IMG/VR virus record: IMGVR_UViG_3300042321_001312
Span: 1 to 31,877 of that record
Source: a virus
Direction: 5' to 3' (one strand)
DNA: 31,877 bases
Under the pieces are notes generated by a model. The model was given only the letters and a program-made list of their open reading frames with translations. It was not told the DNA's origin and ran no database searches. The position numbers and the translations under genes were made by a program. Shown here piece by piece: positions 5,006-30,802 of the stretch. Every line of letters begins with the position of its first letter. The stretch's first letter is position 1.

Positions 5006-5079
5006 GCCCTATTAGTATAATGGTATTACACCGGTTTTGTAATCCGGGTACGGGAGTTCGATTCTCTCATGGGGCACCA
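5006..5079 (+). tRNA. tRNA-Thr (UGU)
   Basis: Acceptor GCCCTAT pairs with ATGGGGC (one wobble). The anticodon arm is CCGG/CCGG with loop TTTGTAA, giving TGT. T arm GGGAG/CTCTC, discriminator A, encoded CCA. Confidence 0.92.
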
Positions 5080-5087
5080 AGTTAGTT

Positions 5088-5161
5088 GCGGGATTCGTAT
5101 AATGGTAATACCTTAGCCTTCCAAGCTAAAGCCAGGAGTTCGATTCTCCTATCCCGCTCCA
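5088..5161 (+). tRNA. tRNA-Gly (UCC)
   Basis: Acceptor GCGGGAT pairs perfectly with ATCCCGC. The anticodon stem is TTAGC/GCTAA with loop CTTCCAA, giving TCC. T arm AGGAG/CTCCT, discriminator T, encoded CCA. Confidence 0.94.
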
Positions 5162-17812: not shown

Positions 17813-18654
17813 TTATTGGTGGTTTCACCAACTATGAAATCAATCAGTTAAAACCTTGGGTATTGTCAGCAAAAGAAGTTGCTGGTGATAATGATGTTGT
17901 TCTGGTTACGGGTAAAACAACACAAAAAACAATCGATTGGTTAAATGAACAAGGTGTCATTGTTGTTCCAATGGCTCATGTTGATGGCGTTCCAATTCAC
18001 GTTTTGAGATTCCTATCAATCTATGAATATCTCAGAACAAACTGGGCAAAATATAAATTGGTTGTTACGACCGATGTAAAAGACGTTTACTTTCAAAAAG
18101 ATCCATTCGAACACATTGAAAGAGAAATCACACCAGGTTCCTCGGTGAAATTAATTGTTGCATCTGAAGGGCTTCGTTATAAAGATGAACCTTGGGGTGA
18201 TGACAATCTGAAACAGTCCTATGGTCCATATGTTTATGAACAATTCAAAAACAATGTTATCTACAACGTAGGAACTTTTGGTGGCGCTTCAGAATATGTG
18301 AAAGATATGGTTTTCAATATCTTTACGAATGCAATCAACAGGCCAATTCCTATTTGTGACCAAGCAGTATTCAATGTTTTGATTGGCACACAACCTTTCA
18401 AAGATGTGGTGAGAGTCACAGTTAGTTGGGCTTGTGAAGCTGGCACTGTTGCAGATCCAACAAAGATTGATTATTTCAGACCAAATCTATTGTGTTATGA
18501 ACCAGTGTTTGATAATGGTGTTGTAATGACACATGATAGATATGTTTTCCCCATCGTTCATCAATATGATCGCGTTCCCGAATGGAAGAAATTCGTTGAA
18601 CAAAAATATGATCAGGAAGATGAATCACAATTCTTTAAGTATAGGACTTTATAA
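17797..18654 (+). CDS. Glycosyltransferase-like protein (GTG start)
   Basis: The product is 285 residues. The GTG at 17797 is chosen as start because GGAG (17786-17789) sits 7 bases upstream. It overlaps the previous gene. Motifs resemble nucleotide-sugar transferases of the GT-A type: LVVTTDVKDVYFQKDPF (a D-x-D region), YNVGTFGGASEYVKDMV, ICDQAVFNVLIGT and FPIVHQYDRVPEW near the end. The NxG-GG and C/DQxxFN pattern is typical of glycosyltransferases acting on glycans, although the family number is not clear by eye. No membrane segment, so cytoplasmic. It ends in an ATGA-type overlap with the methyltransferase gene. Confidence 0.75.
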   Translation: MEKNLIIGGFTNYEINQLKPWVLSAKEVAGDNDVVLVTGKTTQKTIDWLNEQGVIVVPMAHVDGVPIHVLRFLSIYEYLRTNWAKYKLVVTTDVKDVYFQKDPFEHIEREITPGSSVKLIVASEGLRYKDEPWGDDNLKQSYGPYVYEQFKNNVIYNVGTFGGASEYVKDMVFNIFTNAINRPIPICDQAVFNVLIGTQPFKDVVRVTVSWACEAGTVADPTKIDYFRPNLLCYEPVFDNGVVMTHDRYVFPIVHQYDRVPEWKKFVEQKYDQEDESQFFKYRTL

Positions 18655-19223
18655 TGAGTGACGTTATTACATTTAATACTGAAACACAAGCTTTCACACT
18701 TCCGACCACAACGTTCAAGTGTTCTGGTTACGGGCTTGGAGAGATGATCAAAAAAATGCATTATCCAAGAGTGTTGGAAATTGGTTGTGATATTGGTGAC
18801 ACCACACAATTTTTGTTGGATAGTAATCCAGACTGTGTATTGACTGGTGTAGATCCATATTCAAACTATGTTGACTGGAACGGAAACAATCTAAATGAAC
18901 GCGAAGCAATCTATCAAAGATTTATGAATCGTTTGTTGGGTTACAGTAATCGTTTTAATCTGTTGAGAGACTATTCGGACAACGTTGTCGATAAACTATT
19001 TGATGATGATTATGATGTTATCTTTATTGATGGTCTACACACTTACGAACAACTCACCAAAGATTGTGCCAACTTCTATTCTAAAGTGAAGCCTGGTGGC
19101 GTCTTTGCTGGGCATGATTACAATGCTATTCCTGGTGTTCGTAAAGCCGCAGATGAGTTTGCCGCCAAAGTTGGCAAAGAAATTCTTTTCACAGATTGTG
19201 ATGTTTGGTACTGGATCAAATGA
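18654..19223 (+). CDS. Class I SAM-dependent methyltransferase
   Basis: The product is 189 residues. The Rossmann motif I is VLEIGCDIGDTTQFLL (residues 40-55), the acidic end of strand 2 is D67 in LTGVDPYS, and the post-core motifs are YDVIFIDGLHTYEQLTKD and VKPGGVFAGHDY. This order matches methyltransferases of the type found in polysaccharide clusters (Methyltransf_24-like), where the DGxHxY motif binds a metal or substrate. It probably methylates a sugar hydroxyl, given the glycan neighbours; this is inference. It overlaps both neighbours, so it is translated as part of the same operon. Confidence 0.86.
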   Translation: MSDVITFNTETQAFTLPTTTFKCSGYGLGEMIKKMHYPRVLEIGCDIGDTTQFLLDSNPDCVLTGVDPYSNYVDWNGNNLNEREAIYQRFMNRLLGYSNRFNLLRDYSDNVVDKLFDDDYDVIFIDGLHTYEQLTKDCANFYSKVKPGGVFAGHDYNAIPGVRKAADEFAAKVGKEILFTDCDVWYWIK

Positions 19224-19909
19224 AAAATTGTATCGTCTTATCTGGTCAATATAGAACATTTGACCAAACATGGGAAAACATCAAAAAGTTTATTGATTTA
19301 AATCAACTGGATGTTTACTGTCACCTCTGGTCTGACAGTCAGGAAGAATTTAACAATGTGATTGATAGATTGAAACCTATAAGAATCAAAGCCGAGAACT
19401 ATGAGGTTCACAAAGAAGAATTTGAAGAGATGGAAAAAAGGATTCGTCTTGCCCATCCAAAGAATGCAAACAATGATAGAATTGCCGGTAATGCATCGAT
19501 GAACTATAGCCGAAAGGCAGCATTCGATTTGATTGAAGAAGAATATCACACACTGGTATATTGTAGATACGATATCAAGTTTCATCAGTTATTTGATTTC
19601 AAAGATGTTGATATGTTAATCACTCCTTTCGAGGAGTCTTACAATTTAATATCTGATATTTTTGCAATCATGCCATTCTCTTATGCAAAACATTATTTTT
19701 TATATGATGAATATGAAAGATTGCATTCAACTCAATTCGAACAAGAATTTGAAGATCACCTCAGAAATGACCGCAAATATGGTGAGGAGAATATCAGAAT
19801 TCATAAAGAAGATAGATATTGCCCACACATGATGTTATTGCGTAATATATACATGAACAAACTACGTGGTGTAACAACAGACCAACTCAGAGTATCGATA
19901 CAAAGATGA
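19220..19909 (+). CDS. Glycosyltransferase-like protein, SGQYR family (229 aa)
   Basis: The start is ATG 19220, overlapping the methyltransferase stop as ATGA; an in-frame TTG upstream is less likely. The N-terminus MKNCIVLSGQYRTFDQTWEN matches the 'xxxLSGQ.R.f' start that is also seen in the next gene (IALCFSGQSRSF), and both continue with a 'DVY.H.W' strand. LVYCRYDIKFHQLF (R-x-D) and DIFAIMPFSYA are shared features too. These two neighbours are therefore diverged paralogues. Proteins of this kind are usually annotated as glycosyltransferase-like in capsule and phage clusters, but catalysis has not been shown to my knowledge. Confidence 0.7.
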   Translation: MKNCIVLSGQYRTFDQTWENIKKFIDLNQLDVYCHLWSDSQEEFNNVIDRLKPIRIKAENYEVHKEEFEEMEKRIRLAHPKNANNDRIAGNASMNYSRKAAFDLIEEEYHTLVYCRYDIKFHQLFDFKDVDMLITPFEESYNLISDIFAIMPFSYAKHYFLYDEYERLHSTQFEQEFEDHLRNDRKYGEENIRIHKEDRYCPHMMLLRNIYMNKLRGVTTDQLRVSIQR

Positions 19910-20583
19910 AAATTGCATTATGTTTTTCTGGACAATCCAGATCGTTTGAAAAAGGTTATGAATATTACAAACGTAATCTACTAGACCATTACGATGTGGA
20001 TGTGTACATTCATAGTTGGAAATTTGATGGTGAAAGAAAACTTTTGGAACTTTATAGGCCAACAAGTTATGAATTCGACACACCACCTTTGGTTGATTAT
20101 GACAGCAAGTATAAAAATACACCAAACGCAGAGAAATATCCTCCAAGATTCACTTATCGGATGTTCTATTCTATGAATGAATGTAAAAAATTGGTCTTTG
20201 GTGATTATGATTGGATCATTCGTTCGCGTACAGATTATGCATTGAACGTGAAGATTCCTTTCGAACAGTTGGATAATTCTAAGTTGTACATACCAAATTG
20301 CAGAATGGTGCCGACGAGAGACTTTGGGAATGACCAGTTTGCTTTTTCATCAAAAGACAATATGATGAAATATATGTCAACATATGAAAACATTGATGAA
20401 TACTACAATGGTGGCAATCAATTCATTGGTGAAGACTTGATGAGAGCGAACTTACACAAACACGGTTTGATTGGTGAGAAACTTGTCTATGTGAACATGA
20501 ACAATCCATTTCCACCTGGTGCTCACAACGGAACATGGCATTCTTTAATTCGGGATGATTACGAACAATGGACAAAATCATAA
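19906..20583 (+). CDS. Glycosyltransferase-like protein, SGQSR family (225 aa)
   Basis: The start overlaps the previous stop by four bases (ATGA). MKIALCFSGQSRSFEKGYEY, then DVYIHSWKFDG, then DWIIRSRTDYALNV and FGNDQFAFSSKDNM parallel the preceding protein and fit a GT-A-like fold with R-x-D as the donor-site acidic motif. KHGLIGEKLVYVNMNNPFPPGAHNGTW near the C-terminus is unrecognised. It probably transfers a sugar, substrate unknown. The last 16 bases overlap the kinase gene start. Confidence 0.7.
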   Translation: MKIALCFSGQSRSFEKGYEYYKRNLLDHYDVDVYIHSWKFDGERKLLELYRPTSYEFDTPPLVDYDSKYKNTPNAEKYPPRFTYRMFYSMNECKKLVFGDYDWIIRSRTDYALNVKIPFEQLDNSKLYIPNCRMVPTRDFGNDQFAFSSKDNMMKYMSTYENIDEYYNGGNQFIGEDLMRANLHKHGLIGEKLVYVNMNNPFPPGAHNGTWHSLIRDDYEQWTKS

Positions 20584-21311
20584 AGGAACTCAGTGGTCAT
20601 TCCGGTTGTAAAATATTTTTGAAAGAAAACGAAACCGGATTGTACGTTGAAAAGACTGGTAATATAGAAAGAAATTTCAAACAAATGAAGTTTCTATATG
20701 ATGCATACTATCCTGTTCCTGAAATATATTCGGTTGGTGAAAATGTTCTAATCATGGAATACATTCACGGTTTGGATATGAAGAATTATCTAATACACAA
20801 TAATAGTCACCAGCTGTTTAATTTTTTGTCTACTTTATTTGATAATTTTTCTGATAATCTCGAAATGAAAGACTATACCGAAACTTATTACAATAAGTTG
20901 AAGTGGTTGGACGACTGTGATGAAATGCCATTCACAAAGGAAGAATTGATTGGCAAGTTACCTAAAATTTTACCCAAATCAACATATCATGGCGACTTAA
21001 CGTTAGAGAACATAATGTACACCGATCCAGGATTTCACCTGATCGATCCTGTCACGATAGAATATGATTCTTATGTCTTTGACATTGCAAAACTCAGGCA
21101 AGACCTGGAGTGCAAATGGTTCTTAAGAAACACCAATATCAAGTTGGAGGTCAAGTTACAGAACCTACAAAATAAACTAAGAAAACAATATGAAAAGTTT
21201 TTCGATGACAATCTTTTGATATTGATGTTGTTAAGAGTCTATCTACATACTAAACAAGGTGATGACAACCATAAATTCATTATGAAGGAAATAAACAGAC
21301 TATGGAAATAA
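20568..21311 (+). CDS. Small-molecule kinase, APH/choline-kinase fold
   Basis: The product is 247 residues. The catalytic loop is YHGDLTLENIMYT (H141, D143, N148) and the metal-binding aspartate is D160 in HLIDPV, which replaces the DFG motif as in aminoglycoside phosphotransferases and choline or sugar kinases. The N-lobe has the hinge strand VLIMEYIHGLDM. The family phosphorylates small hydroxyl compounds such as choline, ethanolamine or sugars. The next gene is a nucleotidyltransferase, so the pair could make an activated (NDP- or CDP-) building block. Overlaps on both sides show tight coupling. Confidence 0.82.
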   Translation: MDKIIKELSGHSGCKIFLKENETGLYVEKTGNIERNFKQMKFLYDAYYPVPEIYSVGENVLIMEYIHGLDMKNYLIHNNSHQLFNFLSTLFDNFSDNLEMKDYTETYYNKLKWLDDCDEMPFTKEELIGKLPKILPKSTYHGDLTLENIMYTDPGFHLIDPVTIEYDSYVFDIAKLRQDLECKWFLRNTNIKLEVKLQNLQNKLRKQYEKFFDDNLLILMLLRVYLHTKQGDDNHKFIMKEINRLWK

Positions 21312-22327
21312 TTGTACCCGCAGCAGGACTATCTACAAGATTTCCTGACATGAAGCCAAAATATCTCTTGTACGATTACAGGGGTGAAATGATGTTGATG
21401 AATGCACTGAGAAAATATAGGGAACTCGGTATGAAAATCAACATCGGTATTCTAAAAGAACACCAAGACAAGTATGCTGTCATAGAACAGATACAACATG
21501 AATGGTCCGACAATCTTAATTTTGTTGTGATTGATAAACCAACCAAAGGGCCTGCCGATACTGTATATCGCATTTTATCAGAATCTGGTACAAAAGGTGA
21601 GTTCTTAGTTAAAGATTGTGACAGTTTCTTTGACCACGAAAACACATCAGGTAATTACATTTGTGTTTCCAACATCTCTGAACATGAGATTCTGAAGAAG
21701 TTGGCATCAAAAAGTTTTGTTATTGTTAATGAACAAGACATTGTAACCAATATCATAGAAAAACAGGTTGTTTCAGACACATTCTGTGTTGGTGGTTACA
21801 AATTCGAAAGTGCTGAACAATACAAGTCTGCTTTTGAATATGTTTCACAAATGGATGGTGAAATCTTTGTTTCTGATATTATTGGTCGAATGTTAGATCA
21901 AGGGCACATTTTCACCAAGAGAAGTGTCACAAATTATGTTGACGTTGGAACCGCGAATGATTGGTTTGAATACAATGACAGACCAGTGATCTTCTGTGAC
22001 ATTGATGGTACAATTGTCAAGGCACAATCTAGACTGGATCTGGAAAGTAAGTGTCTTGAAGTACCTTTACAGAATAATGTGAAAAGATTATTGAAACTCC
22101 AAGATAGTGGCGCACAATTTATCTTTACTTCTGCTAGAGAAAATGAGTATACATCACTGACAAGAGAGATGTTATATCGGTTAGGTTTTAAAAGTTTCAC
22201 TTTGATTTGTGGTCTACAGAATTCTAGAAGAATCTTGATCAATGATTACAACAAGGCGAATCCATATCCTAGAGCAGAAGCCATCAATTTATACCGAGAT
22301 TCTGATAACCTGAGTGATTTTCTATGA
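21302..22327 (+). CDS. Nucleotidyltransferase-HAD phosphatase fusion
   Basis: Residues 1-220 form a nucleotidyltransferase: signature PAAGLSTRF at 6-14 followed by K-P-K near 18-20, and the metal-site region LVKDCDSFF (D105/D107). Residues 228-341 form a HAD domain: motif I FCDIDGTIV with D233 and D235, motif II FTSAREN and a late acidic INDYNKANP. Such fusions activate sugar-1-phosphates or phospho-alcohols as NDP or CDP derivatives and remove a phosphate in the same pathway. With the upstream kinase it forms a likely three-step route (kinase, phosphatase, nucleotidyltransferase). The exact substrate cannot be read. Confidence 0.82.
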   Translation: MEIIVPAAGLSTRFPDMKPKYLLYDYRGEMMLMNALRKYRELGMKINIGILKEHQDKYAVIEQIQHEWSDNLNFVVIDKPTKGPADTVYRILSESGTKGEFLVKDCDSFFDHENTSGNYICVSNISEHEILKKLASKSFVIVNEQDIVTNIIEKQVVSDTFCVGGYKFESAEQYKSAFEYVSQMDGEIFVSDIIGRMLDQGHIFTKRSVTNYVDVGTANDWFEYNDRPVIFCDIDGTIVKAQSRLDLESKCLEVPLQNNVKRLLKLQDSGAQFIFTSARENEYTSLTREMLYRLGFKSFTLICGLQNSRRILINDYNKANPYPRAEAINLYRDSDNLSDFL

Positions 22328-23025
22328 TACCAGATAAAAATCTGTTTATTGTTACTTCATCACTTAAACCAGCCATTGGTGCATTTAATGACGAAGAAAG
22401 ATTTTCACAAACAGTTGCATCATTGAAGTCTATACGCAAGGTGTTACCTGAAGCAATCATATTGTTTGCAGATGTTTCGGTTAGACCAGTCTCGGAGTTA
22501 GAAAAAGAAACTTTAGCTGGTCTATCAAATTATTATTTGGATTTGAGTGAAGAACCAAATACAAGATATTGTGCAGTAAATGGTCTGAAGAGTCATGGTG
22601 AAAACTGTTTATTGTTTGCAACACTTGCAACAATTAAAAATGACTTAAAATTAAGTAAGATGTTGAGTTCAGTCAAAAGAATATTTAAGTTTTCTGCAAG
22701 GTCTGAACTTGAAGATAGTTTCGATATGAAAGAATATGAAAACTTGTTTGGTAAGTTTGTATTCAAGAAAAGAATACCAACTTGGATGGGTTACATTAAG
22801 TTTGGTGCAGATCATCTATTAATCACCAGAATGTGGTCAATGTGCCCATCTTTAATAGATGCTTATTTATCAGTTATTCAACAGAATCTAGGAATGTTAT
22901 CCAATGGTCTTGCTGACACAGAACATGCACATTATGTAAATATACCAAAAGATTATTTGATCGAATTTGACAAAATACATTGCTGGGGATGGTTGGCGGG
23001 AAATAGACAAATCGAACATTATTGA
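22324..23025 (+). CDS. Glycosyltransferase-like hypothetical (233 aa)
   Basis: ATG 22324 overlaps the previous TGA. The start NLFIVTSSLKPAIGAFNDEE is followed by a 'RfxQTvaSLkSIRkvlPeA' segment typical of glycosyltransferase-like proteins in phage and giant-virus glycan clusters. IFKFSARSELEDSFD is the likely acidic donor-site region and HCWGWLAGNRQI lies at the end. No signal peptide or membrane segment. It is the last gene of the glycan block; after it come a sigma70 promoter and a late promoter. Activity is inferred from family appearance and neighbours. Confidence 0.62.
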   Translation: MIPDKNLFIVTSSLKPAIGAFNDEERFSQTVASLKSIRKVLPEAIILFADVSVRPVSELEKETLAGLSNYYLDLSEEPNTRYCAVNGLKSHGENCLLFATLATIKNDLKLSKMLSSVKRIFKFSARSELEDSFDMKEYENLFGKFVFKKRIPTWMGYIKFGADHLLITRMWSMCPSLIDAYLSVIQQNLGMLSNGLADTEHAHYVNIPKDYLIEFDKIHCWGWLAGNRQIEHY

Positions 23026-23132: not shown

Positions 23133-24332
23133 ATGAAATCTTTTAAGTCATTTATCAGAGAACAGGTAGAGCCTGAAGAGGAAGGTGCAAGCCGTCAGAT
23201 TAAACATTTGACGCACGTTGAAGATCGTCCACTTCAAAAGGGAGAAAAGGGTGCAAAACACGCCATGAAATCTCTGATGGCTGCGGCTGAACACATAAAA
23301 CAAGGTAAAAAGACTTCCGAATTAACAACAAAATATGATGGATCTCCTGCCATCGTTTATGGGCATCATCCAGAAAATGGTAAGTTTTTTGTTGCATCCA
23401 AGTCAGCCTTCAACAAAACACCTAAGGTCAACTATACTCCAGCTGACATTCTAAAGAACCATGGTCATGCACCAGGTCTTGTTTCCAAATTAAAAGAAGC
23501 ACTCAAACACTTACCCAAAGTTACACCAAAAGAAGGTGTTTATCAAGGTGACATGATGTTTTCGGCCGAAGATAAGAAGAAAAGTGTTGATGGTGGAACA
23601 TCTTTTAATCCAAATCCTTCTGGTTTGACATACACCGCACATGGAGATCATAAGAAGTCCGTAGACAAGGCAAAAATTGGTGTCGTCACACACCTCTCAT
23701 ACCACGGCAAAGATTCCAAAAATCTAAACGCATCACACGAAGTTGATCACGAAAACTTCCAGAAACATTCGGATGTATTCTCGGTCGACCCAAGAATGGA
23801 TACTGCAAAGGTTCATTTTAGTAAAGAACATCAAAAACAATTTGATAAACACATTAAGATGGCTCAGTCAGTTCACGATACACACGGTGATGATATGTAT
23901 GCTGGCACCAGTGCTCACCACGGTGTTGGTGGCCATCTAGAAACATATATGAATCACACAGTTAGAACTGGTGAACAACCAAATCATCAAAACTTTAAAA
24001 ACTGGTTAGAAACCAACAAAAACAAAGCCATCGATAAGTTGAAGACCGAAAAAAATAAGACAGCCAAACAATCAGAGTTGAAAGATGAACTGGGCAAGAT
24101 TGAAAGAAATAAGAAACACTATAACAATCTATTCAAAATGCATGGGCATCTACAGGCTGCAAAAAATGTTTTGATTGATGTAATGAATCAACACCAAGAA
24201 TTTCAACATAAACATGGTGGTGAAACTGCTAATCCAGAAGGATACGTATTTCACCACGGAAATGAATCGGATAAATTTGTAAATAGAGCAGAATTTTCCC
24301 GCAGAAACTTTGCTGGAATTAGAAACATATGA
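23133..24332 (+). CDS. KxDG ligase/nucleotidyltransferase-like protein with capsid-targeting-like N-terminus
   Basis: The product is 399 residues. K67-Y-D-G70 in TTKYDGSPAIVYG matches motif I (lysine nucleotidylation site) of the DNA/RNA ligase superfamily. GVYQGDMMF at 135-143 fits motif III, NPEGYVF near 367-373 fits motif IV and K381 in SDKFVNR could be motif V. This set recalls the uncharacterised phage family DUF6267. The N-terminus MKSFKSFIRE has Glu at residue 10 after I-x, like the capsid-targeting and cleavage sequence of T4 internal proteins. The middle is His/Lys-rich. AAAGG precedes ATG 23133; both an early-type and a late promoter lie upstream. The stop overlaps the next gene. 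Ligase activity is not proven, since a canonical motif Ia is not obvious. Confidence 0.75.
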   Translation: MKSFKSFIREQVEPEEEGASRQIKHLTHVEDRPLQKGEKGAKHAMKSLMAAAEHIKQGKKTSELTTKYDGSPAIVYGHHPENGKFFVASKSAFNKTPKVNYTPADILKNHGHAPGLVSKLKEALKHLPKVTPKEGVYQGDMMFSAEDKKKSVDGGTSFNPNPSGLTYTAHGDHKKSVDKAKIGVVTHLSYHGKDSKNLNASHEVDHENFQKHSDVFSVDPRMDTAKVHFSKEHQKQFDKHIKMAQSVHDTHGDDMYAGTSAHHGVGGHLETYMNHTVRTGEQPNHQNFKNWLETNKNKAIDKLKTEKNKTAKQSELKDELGKIERNKKHYNNLFKMHGHLQAAKNVLIDVMNQHQEFQHKHGGETANPEGYVFHHGNESDKFVNRAEFSRRNFAGIRNI

Positions 24333-26188
24333 AAAAATTCTTAGAAAAATTACATGAGGACGAACAAACACATAGTCCTGTGGTCATGGCTTTTGGTCGC
24401 ATGAATCCACCCACAATTGGGCATGAAAAGTTGGTCAACAGAGTTAAAGATATTGCGAGTGACTATAATGCACCGCATCATGTGATCATTTCACATACAA
24501 TGGACACAAAGAAAAATCCTTTGGCTGCAAATGTCAAATTGAAACATGCAAAGAGATTTTTCCCAGACACCAATATAGATGTTTCGAGCAAAGAGAGACC
24601 AACCTTCTTACAACACGCTGCAGCACTTCATGCAGCTGGCCACGATCATCTAATCATGGTTGCTGGTTCTGATCGTATACCAGAATATGAACAAAAGTTA
24701 AATCAGTACAATGGAATTGGTCCCGGAAAGTTGTTCAACTTCAAAAAGATAGAAGTCAAGTCTGCTGGACAAAGAGATCCTGATTCTGAAGGCGCAGAAG
24801 GCATGTCTGCATCGAAGATGAGAGAACATGCTATTAATAATCGTTTCAATGACTATATTGACAAAGATGGTAAAAAGAAACCTGGATTCAGAAGTGGTAT
24901 TCCATCACATGTACCAGAAAAACACGCAAAAGAATTGTTCCGCGATGTTAGAAGTGGGCTCGGAATCAATGAAGATTTCAACAGAGGTCTATTTAAAGCA
25001 ATTTTCGTGACAGGTGGTCCAGGTTCAGGTAAAGATATCATCATCCGTGAAGCTATCGCTGAAAGTAAATCCGTTGAACTGAATTCGGTTCAGGCTTTCG
25101 ATATTCTGATGGACAAACAAAAACTCTCAGAGAAGTCAAACGATGTTCGCAGAGAAGCAGTCAGAAATCGTGGTCCATTGATCATTAATGGACCTGCTGA
25201 CGACAATAAATTGTTGACAATCAAAGAAGAACTAGAAGAACTGGGTTATGAAACTTCTATGGTGTTTGTTGACACCACAAATGAAGCCAGTAAGAATAGA
25301 AACGAAAAACTGGCAAAAATGATTGCCGAATCTGTGAGATATGATAAATGGAAACAAGCACAAGCCAGCAAGCTTTCATACTCCCAAAAATTTGAGAACT
25401 TTATCAACTTTAATAATAGCTCTTCCCTAGAAGAAATTGAAGAAGATATTACTGACACCTACGAAAAAATAAATAGGTTCATTGAGAACAAAAATTACAA
25501 TGAAATTGCGTTCTCTTGGTTAGAAAGCCGCGGTAAAATCAATATCGCAGAATCTTATGGTTTATTATTTAAGGAAGATGAAAATGTTAAGAAAAATTCT
25601 AGATTTTTTGAGAATTACAAGTCCAAGCGCAACGCCGGAAAAGCATCCACTGGATATTCAAAAATATCAGCCGGTGCAGGCTCCAGAGCCGCAGGTCCAG
25701 GAGATATCCCAGCCGACAATCGTGCAGGAGACCCCAACGCCGACAATATCAAGTGGGACGCCAACAAGCGAACCGGTAGTTACATCTTCCGAACCTACAC
25801 CGAAGAAAACTCGCAGCAAAGCCGCAAAGACTACCCAGAACCACAAGAGACAAACTTCAGCAAAGACAAAGAAAAAATAAAGAAGAAGGGTCTAAGAGAC
25901 TCTCCTACGGTTAGTCAGAGATTGAGAAACGTTACATCAATTGGACCAGAATTCGATACCCGTCAACAGGGAACAGTCTATCCAATGTCTGGTCTAGGTG
26001 ATGTGACGTATAGAGAAGAGACAAATTTTCATTCTTTCAGAAATAAAATGAAAGAATCTTTTATGGATCCAGGCGACAATGAGATGGGTGTTGCTGGTGT
26101 TTTGAATGGTGCAACAAACAAGGAACCAATTCAAAGTCCAAAAGACAATATTGGTATAACAATAGAAAAGAAAAAGAAAAAGAAATGA
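24329..26188 (+). CDS. Nucleotidyltransferase/P-loop kinase fusion with capsid-targeting-like N-terminus
   Basis: The product is 619 residues and the start overlaps the previous stop. N-terminus MKKFLEKLHE ends in L-x-E at 10. Residues 18-35 (VVMAFGRMNPPTIGHEKLV) hold the T-x-G-H motif of the HIGH nucleotidyltransferase superfamily, and GMSASKMREHAI near 158 fits the second motif (SxSxxR). This is the layout of NMN adenylyltransferases and cytidylyltransferases. A second domain has a Walker A-like VTGGPGSGKD near 227-236, with Asp instead of Ser/Thr after the Lys, and LIINGPADD. Overall it resembles NadR-type fusions. Residues 430-520 are low-complexity Gly/Asp/Asn and carry a second open frame. 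The C-terminus ends in a Lys run. Confidence 0.8.
   Translation: MKKFLEKLHEDEQTHSPVVMAFGRMNPPTIGHEKLVNRVKDIASDYNAPHHVIISHTMDTKKNPLAANVKLKHAKRFFPDTNIDVSSKERPTFLQHAAALHAAGHDHLIMVAGSDRIPEYEQKLNQYNGIGPGKLFNFKKIEVKSAGQRDPDSEGAEGMSASKMREHAINNRFNDYIDKDGKKKPGFRSGIPSHVPEKHAKELFRDVRSGLGINEDFNRGLFKAIFVTGGPGSGKDIIIREAIAESKSVELNSVQAFDILMDKQKLSEKSNDVRREAVRNRGPLIINGPADDNKLLTIKEELEELGYETSMVFVDTTNEASKNRNEKLAKMIAESVRYDKWKQAQASKLSYSQKFENFINFNNSSSLEEIEEDITDTYEKINRFIENKNYNEIAFSWLESRGKINIAESYGLLFKEDENVKKNSRFFENYKSKRNAGKASTGYSKISAGAGSRAAGPGDIPADNRAGDPNADNIKWDANKRTGSYIFRTYTEENSQQSRKDYPEPQETNFSKDKEKIKKKGLRDSPTVSQRLRNVTSIGPEFDTRQQGTVYPMSGLGDVTYREETNFHSFRNKMKESFMDPGDNEMGVAGVLNGATNKEPIQSPKDNIGITIEKKKKKK
25584..25880 (+). 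CDS. Possible overprinted Pro-rich protein (98 aa)
   Basis: This frame lies entirely inside the fusion gene, in a different + frame. ATG 25584 has AAGGA at 25571-25575, 8 bases upstream, better than chance for a nested start. The product has a short hydrophobic start (MLRKILDFLRITSPS), a Pro/Thr/Gln/Val-rich middle (TPTPTISSGTPTSEPVV) and a very basic tail (KKTRSKAAKTTQ...KTKKK). The host frame over the same bases is low-complexity, as often seen where genes overprint. It may still be a chance open frame; no homologue is known to me. Confidence 0.35.
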   Translation: MLRKILDFLRITSPSATPEKHPLDIQKYQPVQAPEPQVQEISQPTIVQETPTPTISSGTPTSEPVVTSSEPTPKKTRSKAAKTTQNHKRQTSAKTKKK

Positions 26189-26928
26189 AATCATTCCTAG
26201 ACTTTGCCAAAGAAAAAGAAAATGACGAACTGAAAAGACAGGTCGATCATTTAAAAGATATGACCGCTGAACACGAAGAGAAAGCCCAATCAGCTTTAAT
26301 GATGGGTGATCGTGATGGGCACGCTTTACATATGGCCAAGTGCGATCATTTCAAAACACAACACGATGCATTAAAGTCTAAAATGAATGAGAGTGTTGAA
26401 CAGATTGATGAAAGTCATGTTGCTATCGCCATGGGTAAAGAAATGGACGATGAAGGTAGTATGATTATGAATCAACTGGATCAAATCGAACGTTCAATTA
26501 AAATGTTACGCGATACAGTAAAAGATCCAGAGATGCAAATTCCTGCTTGGGTACAATCTAAAGTAACTTTGGCCGCAGATTACATGGAAACTGTTGCTGG
26601 TTATATGTCAAGTAAAAACGAAAAGGTCAGTGAAGAAGTTGATCTGGATGAAGCATCACCAGCTTGGCAACGCAAAGAAGGCAAATCTGCATCTGGTGGT
26701 TTGAACCGTAAAGGTATCGCTTCTTATCGTAAACAAAATCCAGGATCAAAGTTATCGATGGCTGTCACAACAAAACCATCGAAGTTAAAACCAGGTTCGA
26801 AAGCAGCAAACAGACGCAAGTCTTTCTGTGCAAGAATGTCGGGAATGAAGAAACGTTTGACTTCTGCTAAGACGGCAAAAGATCCAAACTCTAGAATAAA
26901 TAAGTCACTACGCAAATGGAATTGCTAA
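26185..26928 (+). CDS. DUF6321-like phage protein with capsid-targeting-like N-terminus (247 aa)
   Basis: ATG overlaps the previous TGA. The N-terminus MKSFLDFAKE has Glu at 10 but Ala at the P3 position, a weaker match to the (I/L)xE cleavage rule. Residues 1-68 are a charged coiled-coil-like helix. ESVEQIDES with I-D-E lies at 74-76. The C-terminal 90 residues (PAWQRKEGKSASGGLNRKG, then SYRKQNPGSKLSMAV, then RRKSFCARMSGMKKRL, SRINKSLRKWNC) match my memory of DUF6321, a very basic domain found in phages and large viruses. Its positive charge suits binding to packaged DNA. Probably a head-associated or internal protein; that is inference. Confidence 0.75.
   Translation: MKSFLDFAKEKENDELKRQVDHLKDMTAEHEEKAQSALMMGDRDGHALHMAKCDHFKTQHDALKSKMNESVEQIDESHVAIAMGKEMDDEGSMIMNQLDQIERSIKMLRDTVKDPEMQIPAWVQSKVTLAADYMETVAGYMSSKNEKVSEEVDLDEASPAWQRKEGKSASGGLNRKGIASYRKQNPGSKLSMAVTTKPSKLKPGSKAANRRKSFCARMSGMKKRLTSAKTAKDPNSRINKSLRKWNC
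26895..26902 (+). promoter_or_regulatory. Weak late promoter candidate AATAAATA
   Basis: AATAAATA (7 of 8 bases of the T4 late element) lies 40 bases upstream of the gene at 26942 but inside the coding end of the DUF6321-like gene. In AT-rich DNA a chance match is quite possible. Confidence 0.25.
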
Positions 26929-26941
26929 AAGGAAAACAAAA

Positions 26942-28009
26942 ATGATCAATATAAAAAAACAAGATCCTGTTGCTGATGCTGTTAGAGATATTTTACAGCA
27001 AGAAGCATTAAAAGGCAATCAACACAAAATCGACAAGAACAAGAACAATAAAATCGATGCTCACGATTTTAAAATTCTGCGTGGTGAAAAGAAATCTGTA
27101 AAAGAAGATTCTGTGGAAGAAACAAATAATCCTTTTGACTGGAAAAATTATAAGAGTCAATTGCCTACTAAACCAGGTGAAAAAGCTGGATTTGACTCCA
27201 AGAAAATTTCAACAGGAACTTTTTATTCCAGAAAGCCTGTTAAAGATGAACCGATGAAGAAAGAAGAAGTTGAGCAGATTGATGAATTGAAGAAGTCAAC
27301 TGTAAAGTCATATATGAATAAAAAAGTTGATCGTATTCACAAAGATGCTGATCTTCAATATCCTTTCAAACCAAAACCAATCACCAAAAAAGAAGTTGAA
27401 AAAAATACTAAAGATTTAATGAGAGGTCATGCAAGACTATCTGGTGTTAAGCCAACTTCAGAAGAAGTTGAACAAATTGATGAATTATCAAAATCAACAC
27501 TAGGTTCCTATGTGAAAAATGCAGCAAGAGATGTTGGTGCTTCTCGTTCACTTGGTGCCGACTTTAAGAATAAGGCAGAAAAGTCTAGAAAACCTAATAT
27601 AAAAGCAGCGTCATCTAGACTCTCTGACAGATTTAATGCCGTTGCTCAAAAGCGTCACGCTGGCATAGGCAAAGCAGTTGAACGTTTAACAAAAGAAGAA
27701 ATTGAACAGGTTGATGAACGCACCCTATCTACAAGAGAGACTGCTGAGAAAGAGCGTATCGTAAAGGGTATGAAAAAGAATCTTGCTGGTTTTAAAGCTC
27801 GTTACGGTGAAAGAGCAAAATCAGTCATGTATGCTACAGCAACCAAAAATGCCATGAAAGAAGAGGCACTGGAAGAAGGCAAACGTCCAGAAGGTGATAC
27901 AGTTCCTTTTGTTCAGAATGCAAACACATCTTCTTCACCAATGAAGAAAATCAAAGAAGTCGCTGGTGCAGCAATGAAGAAGATTTATAAAGACTTAAAA
28001 ACTAAGTAA
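26942..28009 (+). CDS. Repeat protein with EF-hand-like loop, probable head protein (355 aa)
   Basis: AAAAGGAAAAC precedes ATG 26942. Residues 31-43 (DKNKNNKIDAHDF) match an EF-hand/dockerin calcium loop: acidic or Asn ligands at positions 1, 3, 5 and 9 and Ile at 8. Three spaced repeats follow: EEVEQIDELKKSTVKSYMN at 108-126, EEVEQIDELSKSTLGSYVK at 174-192 and EEIEQVDERTLS near 252-263. The first two contain I-D-E, which fits the T4 prohead protease rule (I/L)-x-E. The rest is Lys-rich and likely helical, with a basic C-terminus. This kind of EQIDEL repeat recurs in phage proteins near head genes. Probable internal or scaffold-like head component; function unproven. Confidence 0.72.
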   Translation: MINIKKQDPVADAVRDILQQEALKGNQHKIDKNKNNKIDAHDFKILRGEKKSVKEDSVEETNNPFDWKNYKSQLPTKPGEKAGFDSKKISTGTFYSRKPVKDEPMKKEEVEQIDELKKSTVKSYMNKKVDRIHKDADLQYPFKPKPITKKEVEKNTKDLMRGHARLSGVKPTSEEVEQIDELSKSTLGSYVKNAARDVGASRSLGADFKNKAEKSRKPNIKAASSRLSDRFNAVAQKRHAGIGKAVERLTKEEIEQVDERTLSTRETAEKERIVKGMKKNLAGFKARYGERAKSVMYATATKNAMKEEALEEGKRPEGDTVPFVQNANTSSSPMKKIKEVAGAAMKKIYKDLKTK

Positions 28010-28010
28010 A

Positions 28011-28997
28011 ATGAATAAGACTGCATCTAAAATAAAAGAAATTGTTAAAAGAACTGTTGCCGAAAAACCATCCTTTGGCACAGATCCTATGGAACCATGG
28101 TCTGCTAAGTATAATGTAACTGAAGATGCAGCTCTTGATAGATATCTTTTGTCTAGAGGTTTGAATCCGAAATACGTGAATAAGGACCTAAAAGTTTCAC
28201 ATGCAAAGTCCAATGCATTTATAAATTGGAAAAATTCTCATTCGAATGAGATTCAAAAAGAATCAATGACAATGGCACATACGCCTACAGCGAAAAGACA
28301 ATACCAATTAAAGAAGTCTGCACACTTTGGTAAAGAAGTTCGAACCAACGGCATACACGGTTCAAAACTACATTCAGAAGCCGTTGATAAAAGAGATACT
28401 GTCACATTCGATATTCCATTTTTAATCAGAGTGTTGGAATACTCGCGTGAAGATGCCAAGACAGATATGGATCTTCATAATGTTGTAACGAAATTGATTC
28501 ATATTCGTAACAAGGGTGTTCTGACAATGAAGGACTACAACTTTGTTACCAGATTGAAAGAACACTTTGAAATCGATGATATCATCACCGAACAAGAATG
28601 TAAGTGTTCGGACGAAAAGGAATGGGAAAAGAAAGCACAGGCTCGTTCTGAAATTTGGAGAAGAAAGCGTCTAAAGATTGATGAAGACAAATATCAAGAT
28701 CCAATGGCTGCAACACAGACTGTTGGTTCAGAAGTTGATACCGATTCTGTACCAAAAAGAAAACGTGAAATGACAAAATCAGCAAGAATGATCAAGTCAA
28801 TTTACAAAAAGAAACGTGTCAAGAATGTCAAAGAAGAATTATATGATCACGAAAAAGAAGATAAAGGTGCGAAATTTGGTGAAAAACCATTTGCTGCAGC
28901 TGTTCTCAAGGGCGGAAAAACAATGACTGGTACACAAAGAGACACCATCGAAATTGATCCAATGATGCGTGCCAAGCCAGGAAAAGTAAACAGATAA
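28011..28997 (+). CDS. Hypothetical phage protein, probable virion or head-associated (328 aa)
   Basis: The gene starts one base after the previous stop. Two parts look conserved: a helical segment at about 129-165 (DTVTFDIPFLIRVLEYSRED, then AKTDMDLHNVVTKLIHIRNKG) and the C-terminus (KGGKTMTGTQRDTIEIDPMM followed by RAKPGK). Both are familiar from T4-like phages of aquatic bacteria, where the protein is uncharacterised. A Cys pair (ECKC at about 198-201) is present but no full zinc motif. Most of the protein is very Lys/Glu-rich. DIITE near 195 contains an I-x-E site. Neighbours suggest a late, head-related role. Confidence 0.65.
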   Translation: MNKTASKIKEIVKRTVAEKPSFGTDPMEPWSAKYNVTEDAALDRYLLSRGLNPKYVNKDLKVSHAKSNAFINWKNSHSNEIQKESMTMAHTPTAKRQYQLKKSAHFGKEVRTNGIHGSKLHSEAVDKRDTVTFDIPFLIRVLEYSREDAKTDMDLHNVVTKLIHIRNKGVLTMKDYNFVTRLKEHFEIDDIITEQECKCSDEKEWEKKAQARSEIWRRKRLKIDEDKYQDPMAATQTVGSEVDTDSVPKRKREMTKSARMIKSIYKKKRVKNVKEELYDHEKEDKGAKFGEKPFAAAVLKGGKTMTGTQRDTIEIDPMMRAKPGKVNR

Positions 28998-29000
28998 ATA
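28993..29000 (+). promoter_or_regulatory. Late promoter candidate GATAAATA
   Basis: GATAAATA differs from the T4 late element only at the first base. It overlaps the upstream stop codon and lies 34 bases before the Ig-domain virion gene. A TAACC-CATA-GGTTA hairpin (29005-29018) and AAGGAG follow, a leader layout expected for a strongly expressed late structural gene. Confidence 0.5.
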
Positions 29001-29033
29001 GTAGATAACCCATAGGTTAAAAGGAGAATATAA

Positions 29034-29720
29034 ATGTCATCTTGGGGAAATAACGACAATGCAGCTAACGCGCCTTACTGGGCAGTTAACTCAACAATTT
29101 TAAATGTGCTCGGGACAGAAAGATCCTATGCTGCACCGACTGCTGCTAACGTAGCACTTCTTTACGGAAACACTACAGCTGATGTTTACCATACAGGTCA
29201 AACAATTGGTCTTTTCGGTGTTGATGGTCAAGAAGCCGATGTTAATGGCAATGGTACAGTACACACAGGCTGGGTCCTAAAGACTACAGGTTCTGGTGGC
29301 CGTGCTGATAGAATTCAACAAGAAGTTCTGGTTGCTCTAAGTGAAATGAAATCTGATGGTGATGGCCAACAGTATCCTAACGTTTCGATTACACTTGTTA
29401 ACCCATCTAACGCTACAGTTGCTTCAAGTTCTTCTAATGCCAACTCTGTTGCATTCACTGTTGGTACCACATTAGCTGGAAATACTTCTGCAACACTGGG
29501 TTATCAGTGGCAAGTTAACAGCAACACAGGTGCTCTGGGCTGGACAAACGTTGCGAACAGCACACCAACCAACACAAGTTATATTGGCGGCACAACACCA
29601 ACACTGCTTGTCTATCCAAAGACAGCCGCAGCGAACGCATTTGTGTTCCGTGCAATTGTTACGGCCGCAGATCAAGGCGTATCTGCAACATCTGCAAACG
29701 CAATAATTACAATCATGTAA
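29034..29720 (+). CDS. Virion structural protein with Ig-like domain (228 aa)
   Basis: A strong AAGGAG lies 8 bases before ATG 29034. The start MSSWGNNDNAANAPYWAVNS and HTGWVLKTTGSGGRADRIQQ with EVLVAL at 76-101 resemble a virion protein type common in T4-like phages of marine and freshwater bacteria. Residues 120-228 look like an immunoglobulin-like domain: SITLVNPSN, LGYQWQVNSN with the core Trp, GWTNVANS, TPTLLVYP, FVFRAIVTA, ATSANAIITI. Such domains decorate heads or tails and may bind carbohydrates. Low charge and Ala/Thr/Asn richness differ from the Lys-rich neighbours. It has its own late-type promoter and a strong terminator, so it is probably an abundant product. Confidence 0.75.
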   Translation: MSSWGNNDNAANAPYWAVNSTILNVLGTERSYAAPTAANVALLYGNTTADVYHTGQTIGLFGVDGQEADVNGNGTVHTGWVLKTTGSGGRADRIQQEVLVALSEMKSDGDGQQYPNVSITLVNPSNATVASSSSNANSVAFTVGTTLAGNTSATLGYQWQVNSNTGALGWTNVANSTPTNTSYIGGTTPTLLVYPKTAAANAFVFRAIVTAADQGVSATSANAIITIM

Positions 29721-29727
29721 TTAAACT

Positions 29728-29754
29728 GGGGATGGTGAGAGCCATCCCCTTTTT
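29728..29754 (+). terminator. Rho-independent terminator
   Basis: A perfect 8-bp GC-rich stem (GGGGATGG / CCATCCCC) with loop TGAGAG is followed directly by TTTTT. It lies 7 bases after the virion gene stop. The T-run ends only 5 bases before the next ATG (29760), so the following genes need read-through. Confidence 0.92.
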
Positions 29755-29759
29755 ATAAG

Positions 29760-30146
29760 ATGTTTGATGATTTGAATGAAGATAATTTTATGATGTATGC
29801 GATGAAAGCATATGTTTCGCCGCACTGCATCATGTCGGAATTTGAGGGAGATATCAAAAGAATAAAATATCTGAAAAGATTATTCAGAAGATATAAGATA
29901 ACAAAATCCCTTAAAGAACGTCTGATTTTAAATCACATCATCTTATTAAACAATGTTTTTGGTCCTAAAGTGACAGCAAGAATATTGTTTTATAAGACCG
30001 ATGAACGCGATTATGATATTTTGAAAACCTTTCTTGCCTATCTGGACATTGCACCTGATGTAGTGTACGGAATAAGAGGAAAGAATATTCTCGTTACTGA
30101 AATTCCGTTAGAAACAAATGTCGCAGAGATATTACTCAAAATATGA
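29760..30146 (+). CDS. Hypothetical conserved phage protein (128 aa)
   Basis: The product MFDDLNEDNFMMYAMKAYVS is followed by helices (KRIKYLKRLFRRYKITKSLK, ERLILNHIILLNNVFGPKV) and FYKTDERDYDILKTFLAYLD. I recognise the type as a small uncharacterised helical protein widespread in T4-like phages of aquatic bacteria. The ATG lies 5 bases after a terminator T-run and has no clear ribosome binding site; an internal Met-Met at residues 11-12 is an alternative start. Its stop overlaps the next ATG. No catalytic motif is visible. Confidence 0.7.
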   Translation: MFDDLNEDNFMMYAMKAYVSPHCIMSEFEGDIKRIKYLKRLFRRYKITKSLKERLILNHIILLNNVFGPKVTARILFYKTDERDYDILKTFLAYLDIAPDVVYGIRGKNILVTEIPLETNVAEILLKI

Positions 30147-30802
30147 AAACATTCAAACAATATTTGGACGAAAAGGGAAGATGCTGGCCAGGTCATAAAC
30201 CTGTTCCTGGTAAGGCACCATTTTCACCCGGCAGTTGCACAAAAGAAGAAGTATCCATTCAAGAGGACCTGAGAAAGTGGTTCAAACAGAAATGGGTACG
30301 CATGGACACCAAGGGTAATATCAAAGGTGACTGTGCAAGAGAACCAGGCGAAGGCAAACCAAAATGTCTGCCTCAGGCTAAAGCACATTCACTAGGAAAA
30401 GAAGGTCGCGCATCAGCTGCACAACGTAAGCGTAGAGAAGATCCTAATCCAGAACGCCGTGGTGCACCAATTAATGTTAAGACTGAAGAAGTTCAACAAA
30501 TACAAGAAAAGAATAAACCAACAAGCCCAGAAAAGTGGGCTAGAGCCAAAGCTGCAGCAAAATCAAAGTTTGCAGTATATCCATCCGCATATGCAAATGC
30601 TTGGGCATCCAAGAAATACAAATCAATGGGTGGTGGTTGGAAATCAGTTTCTGAAGATGCTGGTGCAATGAGTGCTGCACCAACAAATGCAGTCGGCACA
30701 GGAAACATTGCTGGTTCAGGTGGCGCAGGTGGTGAACCTGGTGTTTCGAAGAAAAGAAACCCAGTAATGTCATTCTTCAAGCGCAAACAACAAAAGGCAT
30801 AA
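30143..30802 (+). CDS. Basic two-domain protein with capsid-targeting-like N-terminus (219 aa)
   Basis: The start overlaps the previous stop. The N-terminus MKTFKQYLDE matches the T4 internal-protein targeting pattern closely, with L-D-E at 8-10. I-Q-E sites recur at 39-41 (EEVSIQE) and 120-122 (EEVQQIQE), each at a domain border, so cleavage could release the modules. Domain 1 (43-113) includes KWVRMDTKGNIKGDCAREPG and a Lys/Arg-rich stretch ending in GAPINVKTE, with two Cys. Domain 2 (127-168) is SPEKWARAKAAAKSKFAVYP followed by SAYANAW and GGGW, a small virus-associated domain (DUF5872-like by memory). The C-terminus is Gly/Ala-rich, then basic. Probably packaged with DNA; inference. Confidence 0.72.
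   Translation: MKTFKQYLDEKGRCWPGHKPVPGKAPFSPGSCTKEEVSIQEDLRKWFKQKWVRMDTKGNIKGDCAREPGEGKPKCLPQAKAHSLGKEGRASAAQRKRREDPNPERRGAPINVKTEEVQQIQEKNKPTSPEKWARAKAAAKSKFAVYPSAYANAWASKKYKSMGGGWKSVSEDAGAMSAAPTNAVGTGNIAGSGGAGGEPGVSKKRNPVMSFFKRKQQKA

What the first reader, a model, noticed from the sequence alone, without database searches (positions are those of the whole stretch)
23133..30802. Set of enzymes and basic proteins carrying T4-like capsid-targeting N-termini
Four genes in this late block encode products starting MKSFKSFIRE, MKKFLEKLHE, MKSFLDFAKE and MKTFKQYLDE. All are MKxF with Glu exactly at residue 10, and three have I or L at residue 8, so they match the T4 prohead protease rule (I/L)-x-E. 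From memory, the T4 internal protein IPIII begins MKTYQEFIAE and is cleaved after that Glu once packaged. If this holds, the phage packages a ligase-like enzyme, a nucleotidyltransferase-kinase and basic DNA-binding proteins in its capsid and injects them, perhaps to repair genome ends, restore nucleotide cofactors or block defence at the moment of entry. The motif is seen; the packaging is inference.
Basis: partly seen in the sequence, partly recalled or inferred. Interest (0 to 1): 0.85.

Follow-up and report, generated by a model that had tools for sequence, protein, structure and literature searches.

The report
Capsid cargo proteins with removable tags
An uncultured T4-like phage puts on two likely enzymes and two other proteins a ten-residue label like the one phage T4 uses to load proteins into its head, and the same cutting signal seems to join many small packaged proteins into longer chains that would be cut apart inside the new virus particle.

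Summary
Confirmed: four late genes (23133, 24329, 26185, 30143) begin MKxF with Glu10, three with I/L at residue 8; 0.03 such starts expected among 77 ORFs. In T4, residues 4 and 7 target and 8 and 10 are for cutting; two of the four meet all four positions. In DUF6267 relatives Phe4 and Glu10 are kept in 59 of 60 distinct N-termini while residues between vary. A gp21-type protease lies in the same phage. Homologues of the 24329 enzyme are virion proteins in published cyanophage proteomes; three start MKNFSSFLTE, MKSFLQFLKE, MRFRQFIIE. Internal sites keep the cutting residues and lose the targeting aromatics. Best reading: T4-type capsid-targeted cargo, partly made as tandem polyproteins cut by the prohead protease. 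Not shown: any cut, packaging in this phage, injection, enzyme function. Against: 3 of 8 tagged proteins in three proteomes undetected; 15 of 59 homologues of 24329 lack Glu10.

The parts
23133..23162 (+). capsid-targeting-type leader MKSFKSFIRE of the DUF6267 ligase-like protein; predicted cut after Glu10
   Evidence: F/Y4 and Glu10 in 59 of 60 distinct N-termini; residues 1-24 below pLDDT 50 in the model
23133..24332 (+). DUF6267 protein, ATP-dependent ligase-like fold (predicted)
   Evidence: PF19782 E 3e-93; structural match to RNA ligases Z 8.9, Foldseek E 0.22 only
24329..24358 (+). leader MKKFLEKLHE of the nucleotidyltransferase/P-loop protein (Lys, not aromatic, at residue 7)
   Evidence: F/Y4 in 59 of 59, Glu10 in 44 of 59 distinct N-termini
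24329..26188 (+). nucleotidyltransferase (PPAT/NMNAT-type fold) plus P-loop kinase-like domain plus disordered tail
   Evidence: homologues in the virions of S-CREM2, S-SCSM1, S-SZBM1
24965..24973 (+). predicted internal site INE (residues 213-215) between the nucleotidyltransferase and the P-loop domain
   Evidence: Glu in 67 of 67, [ILV]xE in 65 of 67 homologues; residues 216-220 below pLDDT 50; a separate P-loop protein of HTVC008M aligns from residue 217 and starts MIPFILKE|GLY
26185..26214 (+). leader MKSFLDFAKE (Ala at residue 8)
   Evidence: among 49 proteins sharing any part of the body 29 have F/Y4 and Glu10, 22 of these with I/L/V at 8
26185..26928 (+). acidic part plus basic DUF6321 module
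   Evidence: PF19846 at 166-245; charge +23 in the last 91 residues
26644..26652 (+). predicted internal site LDE (residues 154-156) before the DUF6321 module ASPAWQRKEG
   Evidence: in other loci the module follows a leader or [ILV]xE
26942..28009 (+). leaderless basic tandem-module protein (+25), predicted polyprotein
   Evidence: QIDE|LKKSTVKSY, QIDE|LSKSTLGSY, QVDE|RTLSTRETAE; relatives of 197-483 aa among the 45 of 66 shown
27278..27286 (+). predicted site IDE (residues 113-115)
27476..27484 (+). predicted site IDE (residues 179-181)
27710..27718 (+). predicted site VDE (residues 257-259)
28011..28997 (+). leaderless basic protein (+18); EIWRRKRLKIDE is followed here by DKYQDP and in L020_14770 by the DLRQWF module
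   Evidence: 8 [ILV]xE against 4.3 expected, z 2.1
28677..28685 (+). predicted site IDE (residues 223-225)
30143..30172 (+). leader MKTFKQYLDE
   Evidence: among 55 proteins sharing any part of the body 29 have F/Y4 and Glu10, 23 of these with I/L/V at 8
30143..30802 (+). basic four-module protein (+24): CWPGHK, DLRKWFKQKW, DUF5872-type, APTN modules
   Evidence: 4 [ILV]xE against 1.2 expected, z 2.7
30257..30265 (+). predicted site IQE (residues 39-41) before DLRKWFKQKW
   Evidence: the same module starts directly after the leader MKTFQEFINE in other loci
30500..30508 (+). predicted site IQE (residues 120-122) before KNKPTSPEKW
30647..30655 (+). predicted site VSE (residues 169-171) before DAGAMSAAPTN

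Best explanation
The block encodes internal head cargo of a T4-like phage whose nearest named relatives are Kyanoviridae. Four proteins carry a ten-residue capsid targeting leader of the T4 kind: its aromatic residues dock the protein on the prohead core, and the phage's gp21-type protease then cuts after Glu10 (read from conservation and from T4 genetics, not shown here). Two of the cargoes are likely enzymes, a ligase-like protein and a nucleotidyltransferase with a P-loop domain. The basic proteins, including two without a leader, are strings of small exchangeable modules joined by (I/L/V)-x-Glu, so that the same protease would release several small proteins from one chain. The cargo would sit with the DNA and enter the cell with it; most likely the basic modules neutralise DNA or block defences as T4 internal proteins do, and the enzymes act on nucleotide cofactors or nucleic acid ends before phage genes are expressed. 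Shown: sequence pattern, conservation, protease gene, module boundaries, published virion presence of homologues. Inferred: cutting, packaging here, injection, function.
For: Leaders; distant DUF6267 homologues also carry one, LINFSKYITE in Melnitz-3 and MLDFKNFITE in C48C1. Leaders chosen without looking at residue 10: Glu there in 33 of 42, Asp in 1; T4 work says Asp10 blocks cutting (PMC9026906, passage). Protease: Peptidase_S77 in 10 of 11 long relatives including G001, E 6e-33. Major capsid proteins: L-x-E ending at residue 51-57 in 12 of 12 related phages examined. Boundary test: 32 of 63 against 6 of 52, 0 of 48 and 2 of 46 control positions, pooled Fisher p 3e-13. Targeting aromatic at P4: 84% of 44 leaders, 11% of 44 internal sites. 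Former leaders inside proteins: FITYREFIAE|GNR in S-SZBM1_194, LTFKSFVAE|HCW in L143, GFQNFQSE|CW (Gln at P3) in P-RSM4. Virion presence: S-CREM2 leader genes 4 of 4 detected against 48 of 215 others, p 0.003; nucleotidyltransferase homologues with leaders in the virions of S-CREM2, S-SCSM1, S-SZBM1; homologues of 30143 modules in virions, S-CREM2 gp160 and S-SCSM1 gp029.
Against: No peptide evidence for any cut. Only 23133 and 30143 meet residues 4, 7, 8 and 10 together: 24329 has Lys7, 26185 has Ala8. In S-SZBM1 the two MK-F leader proteins found (_191, _192) are absent from the list of 30; S-SCSM1 gp030 (MKTFKQFMSE) is not labelled as virion; over three proteomes 5 of 8 detected. 15 of 59 nucleotidyltransferase N-termini have A, S, D or K at residue 10. 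By likeness, DUF6267 of S-PM2 and S-SZBM1 (_141) lacks the leader and that of HTVC008M has only MYNDLLVE. Most of the 60 DUF6267 N-termini come from close relatives, so their conservation is partly by descent. The raw number of (I/L/V)xE per protein is unremarkable for most window proteins, and conserved (I/L/V)xE also occur inside folded parts of 24329, so the motif alone does not mark a cut. The wider pattern M..[FY].....E is not specific genome-wide: HTVC008M 16 hits against 23 control, S-CREM2 16 against 20, S-B05 17 against 17, P-RSM4 22 against 17.
Confidence: 0.74

Rival explanations
1. The leaders are true T4-type targeting sequences, but the (I/L/V)-x-Glu linkers inside the basic proteins are not cut; they are acidic flexible hinges or scars of gene fusion, and the proteins act as whole multi-domain chains.
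For: Linkers are acidic (EEVEQIDE) between basic modules, as a hinge could be; fusion of leader genes would leave such scars; no peptide data.
Against: Scars should decay evenly, yet P3 and P1 are kept while the aromatic residues P7 and P4 are mostly gone (the internal sites in that comparison were chosen for P3 and P1, so the exact-position count of 32 of 63 is the fairer figure); Glu 39 of 62 against Asp 2 of 62 at P1, though Asp 12 and Glu 10 at P1'.
Confidence: 0.2
2. The conserved N-terminal stretch is not a packaging signal but a docking peptide for another late partner (for example the scaffold during assembly only, or a host protein), and the virion finds are carry-over.
For: The authors of the S-SCSM1 paper raise carry-over themselves (passage); a passage of the S-CREM2 paper breaks off at a similar caveat; 3 of 8 leader proteins are not in the published virion lists.
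Against: Likeness to residues 4, 7, 8, 10 of the T4 signal; Glu10 has no clear reason to be kept for docking alone; the enzyme is reported from virions of S-SM1, S-CREM2, S-SCSM1 and S-SZBM1 (homology tested for the last three).
Confidence: 0.08
3. Chance or common descent: related paralogues share a start and the pattern says nothing about function.
For: Late-block basic proteins do share modules, so part of the likeness is by descent.
Against: The ligase-like, nucleotidyltransferase and basic proteins match different families after the leader; conserved ends and variable middle of the leader; expected number 0.033.
Confidence: 0.03

Closest known systems
T4 internal proteins IPI-III and Alt with capsid targeting sequence (CTS), cut by gp21
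   Same: Ten-residue leader, Phe/Tyr4, mostly aromatic 7 and I/L 8, Glu10, gp21-type protease, basic cargo
   Different: Cargo includes a ligase-like protein and a nucleotidyltransferase/P-loop protein; tandem modules with several sites per chain. No relation of a body to a T4 internal protein was seen, but I did not test this directly
Cyanophage virion-associated NMNAT/cytidylyltransferase (S-CREM2, S-SCSM1, S-SZBM1; T4-GC190 in S-SM1)
   Same: Homologous domain, 33-37% identical in the three compared; found in virions; leader present in those three
   Different: Those papers, in the passages and sections read, do not name a targeting leader; the window protein has an added P-loop domain behind a conserved INE
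Polyvalent proteins of phages and conjugative elements (PMC5512222, passages)
   Same: Multi-domain chains delivered at infection, compared by those authors with viral polyproteins
   Different: There release is put down to embedded peptidase domains; here no peptidase domain was found and the sites fit the head-maturation protease
SPN3US head proteins cut by the prohead protease gp245 (PMC10052503, passages)
   Same: Head proteins with propeptides removed by a prohead protease, several cuts in one propeptide
   Different: There long propeptides are cut up and mostly lost; here the pieces between sites are conserved, exchangeable modules

Membership tests
T4-type CTS internal head proteins | targeting residues: aromatic 4 and 7 | tested here: met
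   F4 in all four window proteins; residue 7 is F, K, F, Y, so 24329 lacks the second aromatic; P4 aromatic in 84% of 44 distinct leaders
T4-type CTS internal head proteins | cutting residues: I/L at 8 and Glu at 10 | tested here: met
   three of four window proteins; 26185 has Ala8; with I/L/V at 8: DUF6267 59 of 60, nucleotidyltransferase 44 of 59
T4-type CTS internal head proteins | gp21-type prohead protease in the phage | tested here: met
   Peptidase_S77 at G001:101354, E 6e-33
T4-type CTS internal head proteins | present in the mature head | not testable with these tools
   only homologues: S-CREM2, S-SCSM1, S-SZBM1, S-SM1 proteomes
T4-type CTS internal head proteins | leader removed after residue 10 | not testable with these tools
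   no peptide-level data held
DUF6267 (PF19782) | profile match above the curated cut-off | tested here: met
   313.5 bits, cut-off 27
ATP-dependent RNA/DNA ligase superfamily | nucleotidyltransferase fold with KxDG and EGxV motifs | tested here: inconclusive
   K67, D69, G70, E369, G370 invariant in 15 (motif names recalled); Z 8.9 to a Naegleria RNA ligase and ligase entries through the 50 rows listed, but the tool warns that 7 to 8 is common without a relative, and Foldseek gives E 0.22
NMNAT / NadR | NMN adenylyltransferase activity, for NadR with a ribosylnicotinamide kinase domain | tested here: inconclusive
   fold nearest to PPAT (Z 14.3), NMNAT 12.8; Foldseek ranks ATP sulfurylase and UMP/CMP kinase first; no NCBIfam family over its cut-off
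Polyvalent proteins | embedded peptidase domain | tested here: not met
   no peptidase family at E up to 1 in the eight proteins scanned

The most novel reading that the evidence does not exclude
T4-like phages of this broad group make part of their internal head proteins as polyproteins: small basic modules are traded between genes with the prohead-protease site as the joint, a module being either the only body behind a targeting leader or one link in a longer chain. The head-maturation protease would thus also serve as a cargo-releasing protease, and would split the nucleotidyltransferase from its P-loop partner. Some chains in relatives carry a copy of the phage's own capsid-protein arm, a possible anchor to the inner capsid wall.
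Probability: 0.55. Interest if true: 0.82.

Novelty: new variant of a known kind. Interest (0 to 1): 0.72.

Why it matters
It gives a simple sequence rule for finding proteins that T4-like aquatic phages carry into the cell, several now listed only as DUFs. It would explain why an NMNAT-like enzyme keeps turning up in cyanophage virions, and it points to a packaged ligase-like protein. If the chains are cut as predicted, phage heads use polyprotein processing to deliver mixed cargo, and the sites can be tested with existing or new proteomics.

Tried and rejected
Raw motif counting: (I/L/V)xE per protein is near the shuffled expectation for most window proteins, so I relied on position against homologous modules. 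The wider pattern M..[FY].....E over whole records is not specific in several phages. Family look-ups for a nameable function: PADLOC only weak hits, NCBIfam none over its cut-off, PDB sequence profile one weak adenylate kinase. The gene at 16045 (RLSFTKYVTE near its start) showed no relation by BLASTP to the leader-bearing gene before DUF6267 in HTVC008M or Melnitz-3, so I dropped it. The internal-Met control for the leader gave Glu in 5 of only 10 places; I did not sort out which of these are leaders behind an earlier ATG, so it neither helps nor refutes. DUF6267, DUF6321 or PF19782 in the held library: 0 papers. Searches for head polyproteins or targeting sequences listed no paper on them in cyanophages; the lists were cut (15 of 74, 12 of 23 and 10 of 31), I read only passages or single sections, and supplementary tables were not open to me, so absence from print is not proven.

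Limits of the counts. S-CREM2: rule R1 allows V or L at the start and L at residue 4, which takes in gp13 and gp14; with exact MK.F.....E only gp6 and gp154 remain (2 of 2). Wider rules R2 and R3 gave 5 of 6 and 7 of 11. The three-proteome count uses the pattern hits I recognised as gene starts (S-SZBM1 hits with other second residues were not all checked, and the S-SZBM1 cytidylyltransferase, with Glu at residue 9, is not among the 8) and assumes 270 to 290 genes for S-SCSM1. 'Virion protein' in the S-SCSM1 record is taken as mass-spectrometry detection; the paper confirms it for the NMNAT (passage). The boundary test uses matches that start within three residues of the query start, drops positions whose 25-residue surroundings are 70% or more alike, and is not free of common descent; its leader set required A, F, I, L, M, T or V at residue 8. 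The search for related loci kept 80 of 432 and 80 of 100 relatives. The capsid-protein site was taken as the last [ILV]xE ending at residue 38-72; earlier ones exist.
Full report
What was claimed and whether it is there. The window is a 31,877-base virus record. Four ORFs, at 23133, 24329, 26185 and 30143, start MKSFKSFIRE, MKKFLEKLHE, MKSFLDFAKE and MKTFKQYLDE. All have Phe4 and Glu10; residue 8 is I, L, A, L and residue 7 is F, K, F, Y. Among 77 greedily called ORFs in the window and in a further 39 kb of the same phage, these are the only four ATG starts of the form M..[FY].....E, with 0.033 MKxF.....E expected from the residue frequencies of the rest. The same phage is present in a 156,657-base record, G001 (17,477 of 17,478 bases equal over the part compared). 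In G001 and ten other long relatives the DNA pattern for MKxF.....E occurs 43 times against 3 for the reversed pattern; by eye most hits lie in the block around the nucleotidyltransferase gene.

What the proteins are. 23133 is DUF6267 (E 3e-93). Its model (mean pLDDT 84) is below pLDDT 50 over residues 1-24 and folded from about 25. The nearest solved structures are ATP-dependent RNA and DNA ligases (Z 8.9, ligase entries through the 50 rows listed), though Foldseek alone gives only E 0.22; K67-x-D-G and E369-G, invariant in 15 sequences, look like ligase motifs I and IV (names recalled). 24329 has a nucleotidyltransferase domain (PPAT Z 14.3, NMNAT 12.8), a P-loop kinase-like domain and a low-confidence tail (the whole model has mean pLDDT 61.9). 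26185 ends in DUF6321, 30143 holds a DUF5872-type module below its cut-off, and 26942 and 28011 are basic proteins without a leader.

Is the leader a T4 capsid targeting sequence? In T4 the first ten residues of IPIII are enough for loading; residues 4 and 7 matter for targeting, 8 and 10 for cutting, and Asp10 blocks cutting but not targeting (PMC9026906, passage). By that measure 23133 and 30143 meet all four positions, 24329 misses residue 7 and 26185 misses residue 8. As a control, among the 36 T4 hits of the wider scan the only MK starts with I/L/V at residue 8 are ipII, ipIII and 61.1. In DUF6267 relatives F/Y4 and Glu10 are kept in 59 of 60 distinct N-termini, with residues 2, 3, 5, 6 and 9 free (MLSFKTFLTE, MRDFVTYIRE, MQSFKTFIVE); most are close relatives, but members at 46-54% identity and the distant Melnitz-3 and C48C1 proteins (LINFSKYITE, MLDFKNFITE) keep it too. 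For the 24329 family F/Y4 is kept in 59 of 59 but Glu10 in 44 of 59; the other 15 have A, S, D or K. When leaders are picked without using residue 10, Glu stands there in 33 of 42 and Asp in 1. The phage has a Peptidase_S77 gene beside the scaffold and capsid genes, and the capsid proteins of 12 of 12 relatives examined have L-x-E ending at residue 51-57, where gp23 is expected to be cut (the T4 cut position is recalled).

Do leader proteins occur in virions? For S-CREM2, whose proteome lists 52 of 219 proteins (PMC10665884, Table 3), leader genes by rule R1 are gp6, gp13, gp14 and gp154, all four detected, against 48 of 215 others (p 0.003; without tail, capsid and endolysin proteins 4 of 4 against 22 of 189, p 0.0003). 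gp154 is a homologue of 24329 (E 4e-23) and starts MKNFSSFLTE. The S-SCSM1 homologue (E 1e-32) starts MKSFLQFLKE and is a virion protein; the S-SZBM1 homologue (E 2e-29) starts MRFRQFIIE and is in the virion list. The S-SM1 virion holds a putative citidylyltransferase, T4-GC190 (PMC3037559, passage). Against this, S-SZBM1_191 and _192 and S-SCSM1 gp030 carry good leaders and were not listed; over three proteomes 5 of 8 leader genes are detected against 122 of about 709 others (p 0.006).

The larger finding: modules and joints. I searched residues 11-60 of leader proteins against 1,724 ORF proteins of the loci held. Bodies turn up again inside longer proteins, and there the residue before the body is often Glu with I, L or V two places earlier: DLRKWFKQKW after MKTFQEFINE in one gene and after VSIQE in 30143; SAAWQRKEGKNP (DUF6321) after MKSFKQFLEE and after VDLEE, EIDE or IKE; LSSDLLGRYK after MKRFKEKLNE-type leaders and after EQIDE. 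With a wider leader set, 32 of 63 dissimilar internal positions have (I/L/V)xE exactly there and 43 of 63 within one residue, against 8 of 146 (19 of 146) when the query starts 10, 20 or 30 residues later. P1 is Glu in 39 of 62 and Asp in 2, while at P1' Asp is found 12 and Glu 10 times. Leaders have an aromatic residue at P4 in 84%, internal sites in 11%: the cutting residues stay, the targeting residues go. Some joints still look like whole leaders: FITYREFIAE|GNR in S-SZBM1_194, LTFKSFVAE|HCW in L143, and GFQNFQSE|CW in P-RSM4, the last with Gln at P3. In 28011 the stretch EIWRRKRLKIDE is followed by DKYQDP, in a relative by the DLRQWF module. Marine cyanophages string the same modules together: S-BM3 T4-GC119 and the virion protein S-SCSM1 gp029; S-CREM2 gp160, in the virion list, shares modules with 30143 (E 3e-5). 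The window's 24329 has a similar joint, INE215, kept as Glu in 67 of 67, followed by a low-confidence loop, just where a separate P-loop protein of HTVC008M begins to align.

How it most likely works. Leader proteins bind the prohead core, the gp21-type protease cuts leaders and joints, and the freed enzymes and basic modules stay with the DNA. Chains without a leader would need another route into the head, which I cannot name. What the cargo does in the cell is open: T4 IPI inhibits a restriction enzyme (PMC3012670, passage), an NMNAT-type enzyme could restore NAD (suggested by the proteome authors), and a ligase could mend ends. None of this was tested.

How far it is from what is known. The leader is a known kind. 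Enzyme cargo with such leaders in this phage group, and module chains joined by prohead-protease sites, were not described in the passages I read, and five literature searches listed nothing closer than polyvalent proteins, whose release is put down to their own peptidase domains. I rate it a new variant of a known kind.

Noticed in passing
S-CREM2 gp160 (L169:28342-29235), S-B05 (L173:7631-7939), L109:16270, S-SCSM1 gp275 (L197:7122-7307): Small basic late proteins carry a copy of their own phage's major-capsid N-terminal arm, e.g. ATGFTGAAAPEGPVAGYDPLM beside ADGFTGAAAPGGPNAGFDPVM in S-CREM2. Scores 95 (S-CREM2), 99 (S-B05) and 47 (L109) against best shuffles of 59, 50 and 42; the other 11 of 14 phages tested, the window's among them, were not significant (mostly only part of each genome was searched). 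S-SCSM1 gp275, not scored, is annotated 'major head protein' and looks like such an arm plus a basic tail.
   Followed up: partly
T4 NC_000866 complement 18966-19130: T4 gene 61.1 (165 bases, hypothetical) starts MKTFKEFIKE and fits the rule as well as ipII and ipIII, so it may be an unrecognised internal head protein.
   Followed up: no
window 26942-28009, residues about 29-66: EF-hand-like loop DKNKNNKIDAHDF near the start of the tandem-module protein (PF13499 E 0.001, below cut-off).
   Followed up: no
window 23133-26188; S-PM2 L148; PHROG 455: DUF6267 and the nucleotidyltransferase are neighbours in the window and match different parts of one PHROG family of 764 positions; in S-PM2 one annotated gene seems to span both. 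This suggests that they work together.
   Followed up: partly
window 792-5161: Twenty tRNA genes in about 4.4 kb.
   Followed up: no
window 8067-9185 (-): Low-complexity Asn/Thr/Ser-rich protein with repeated NTNNNVN-type stretches.
   Followed up: no
window 17102-23025: A run of genes that look like glycosyltransferases, a methyltransferase and a kinase between replication and head-cargo genes, judged by eye from the translations only.
   Followed up: no
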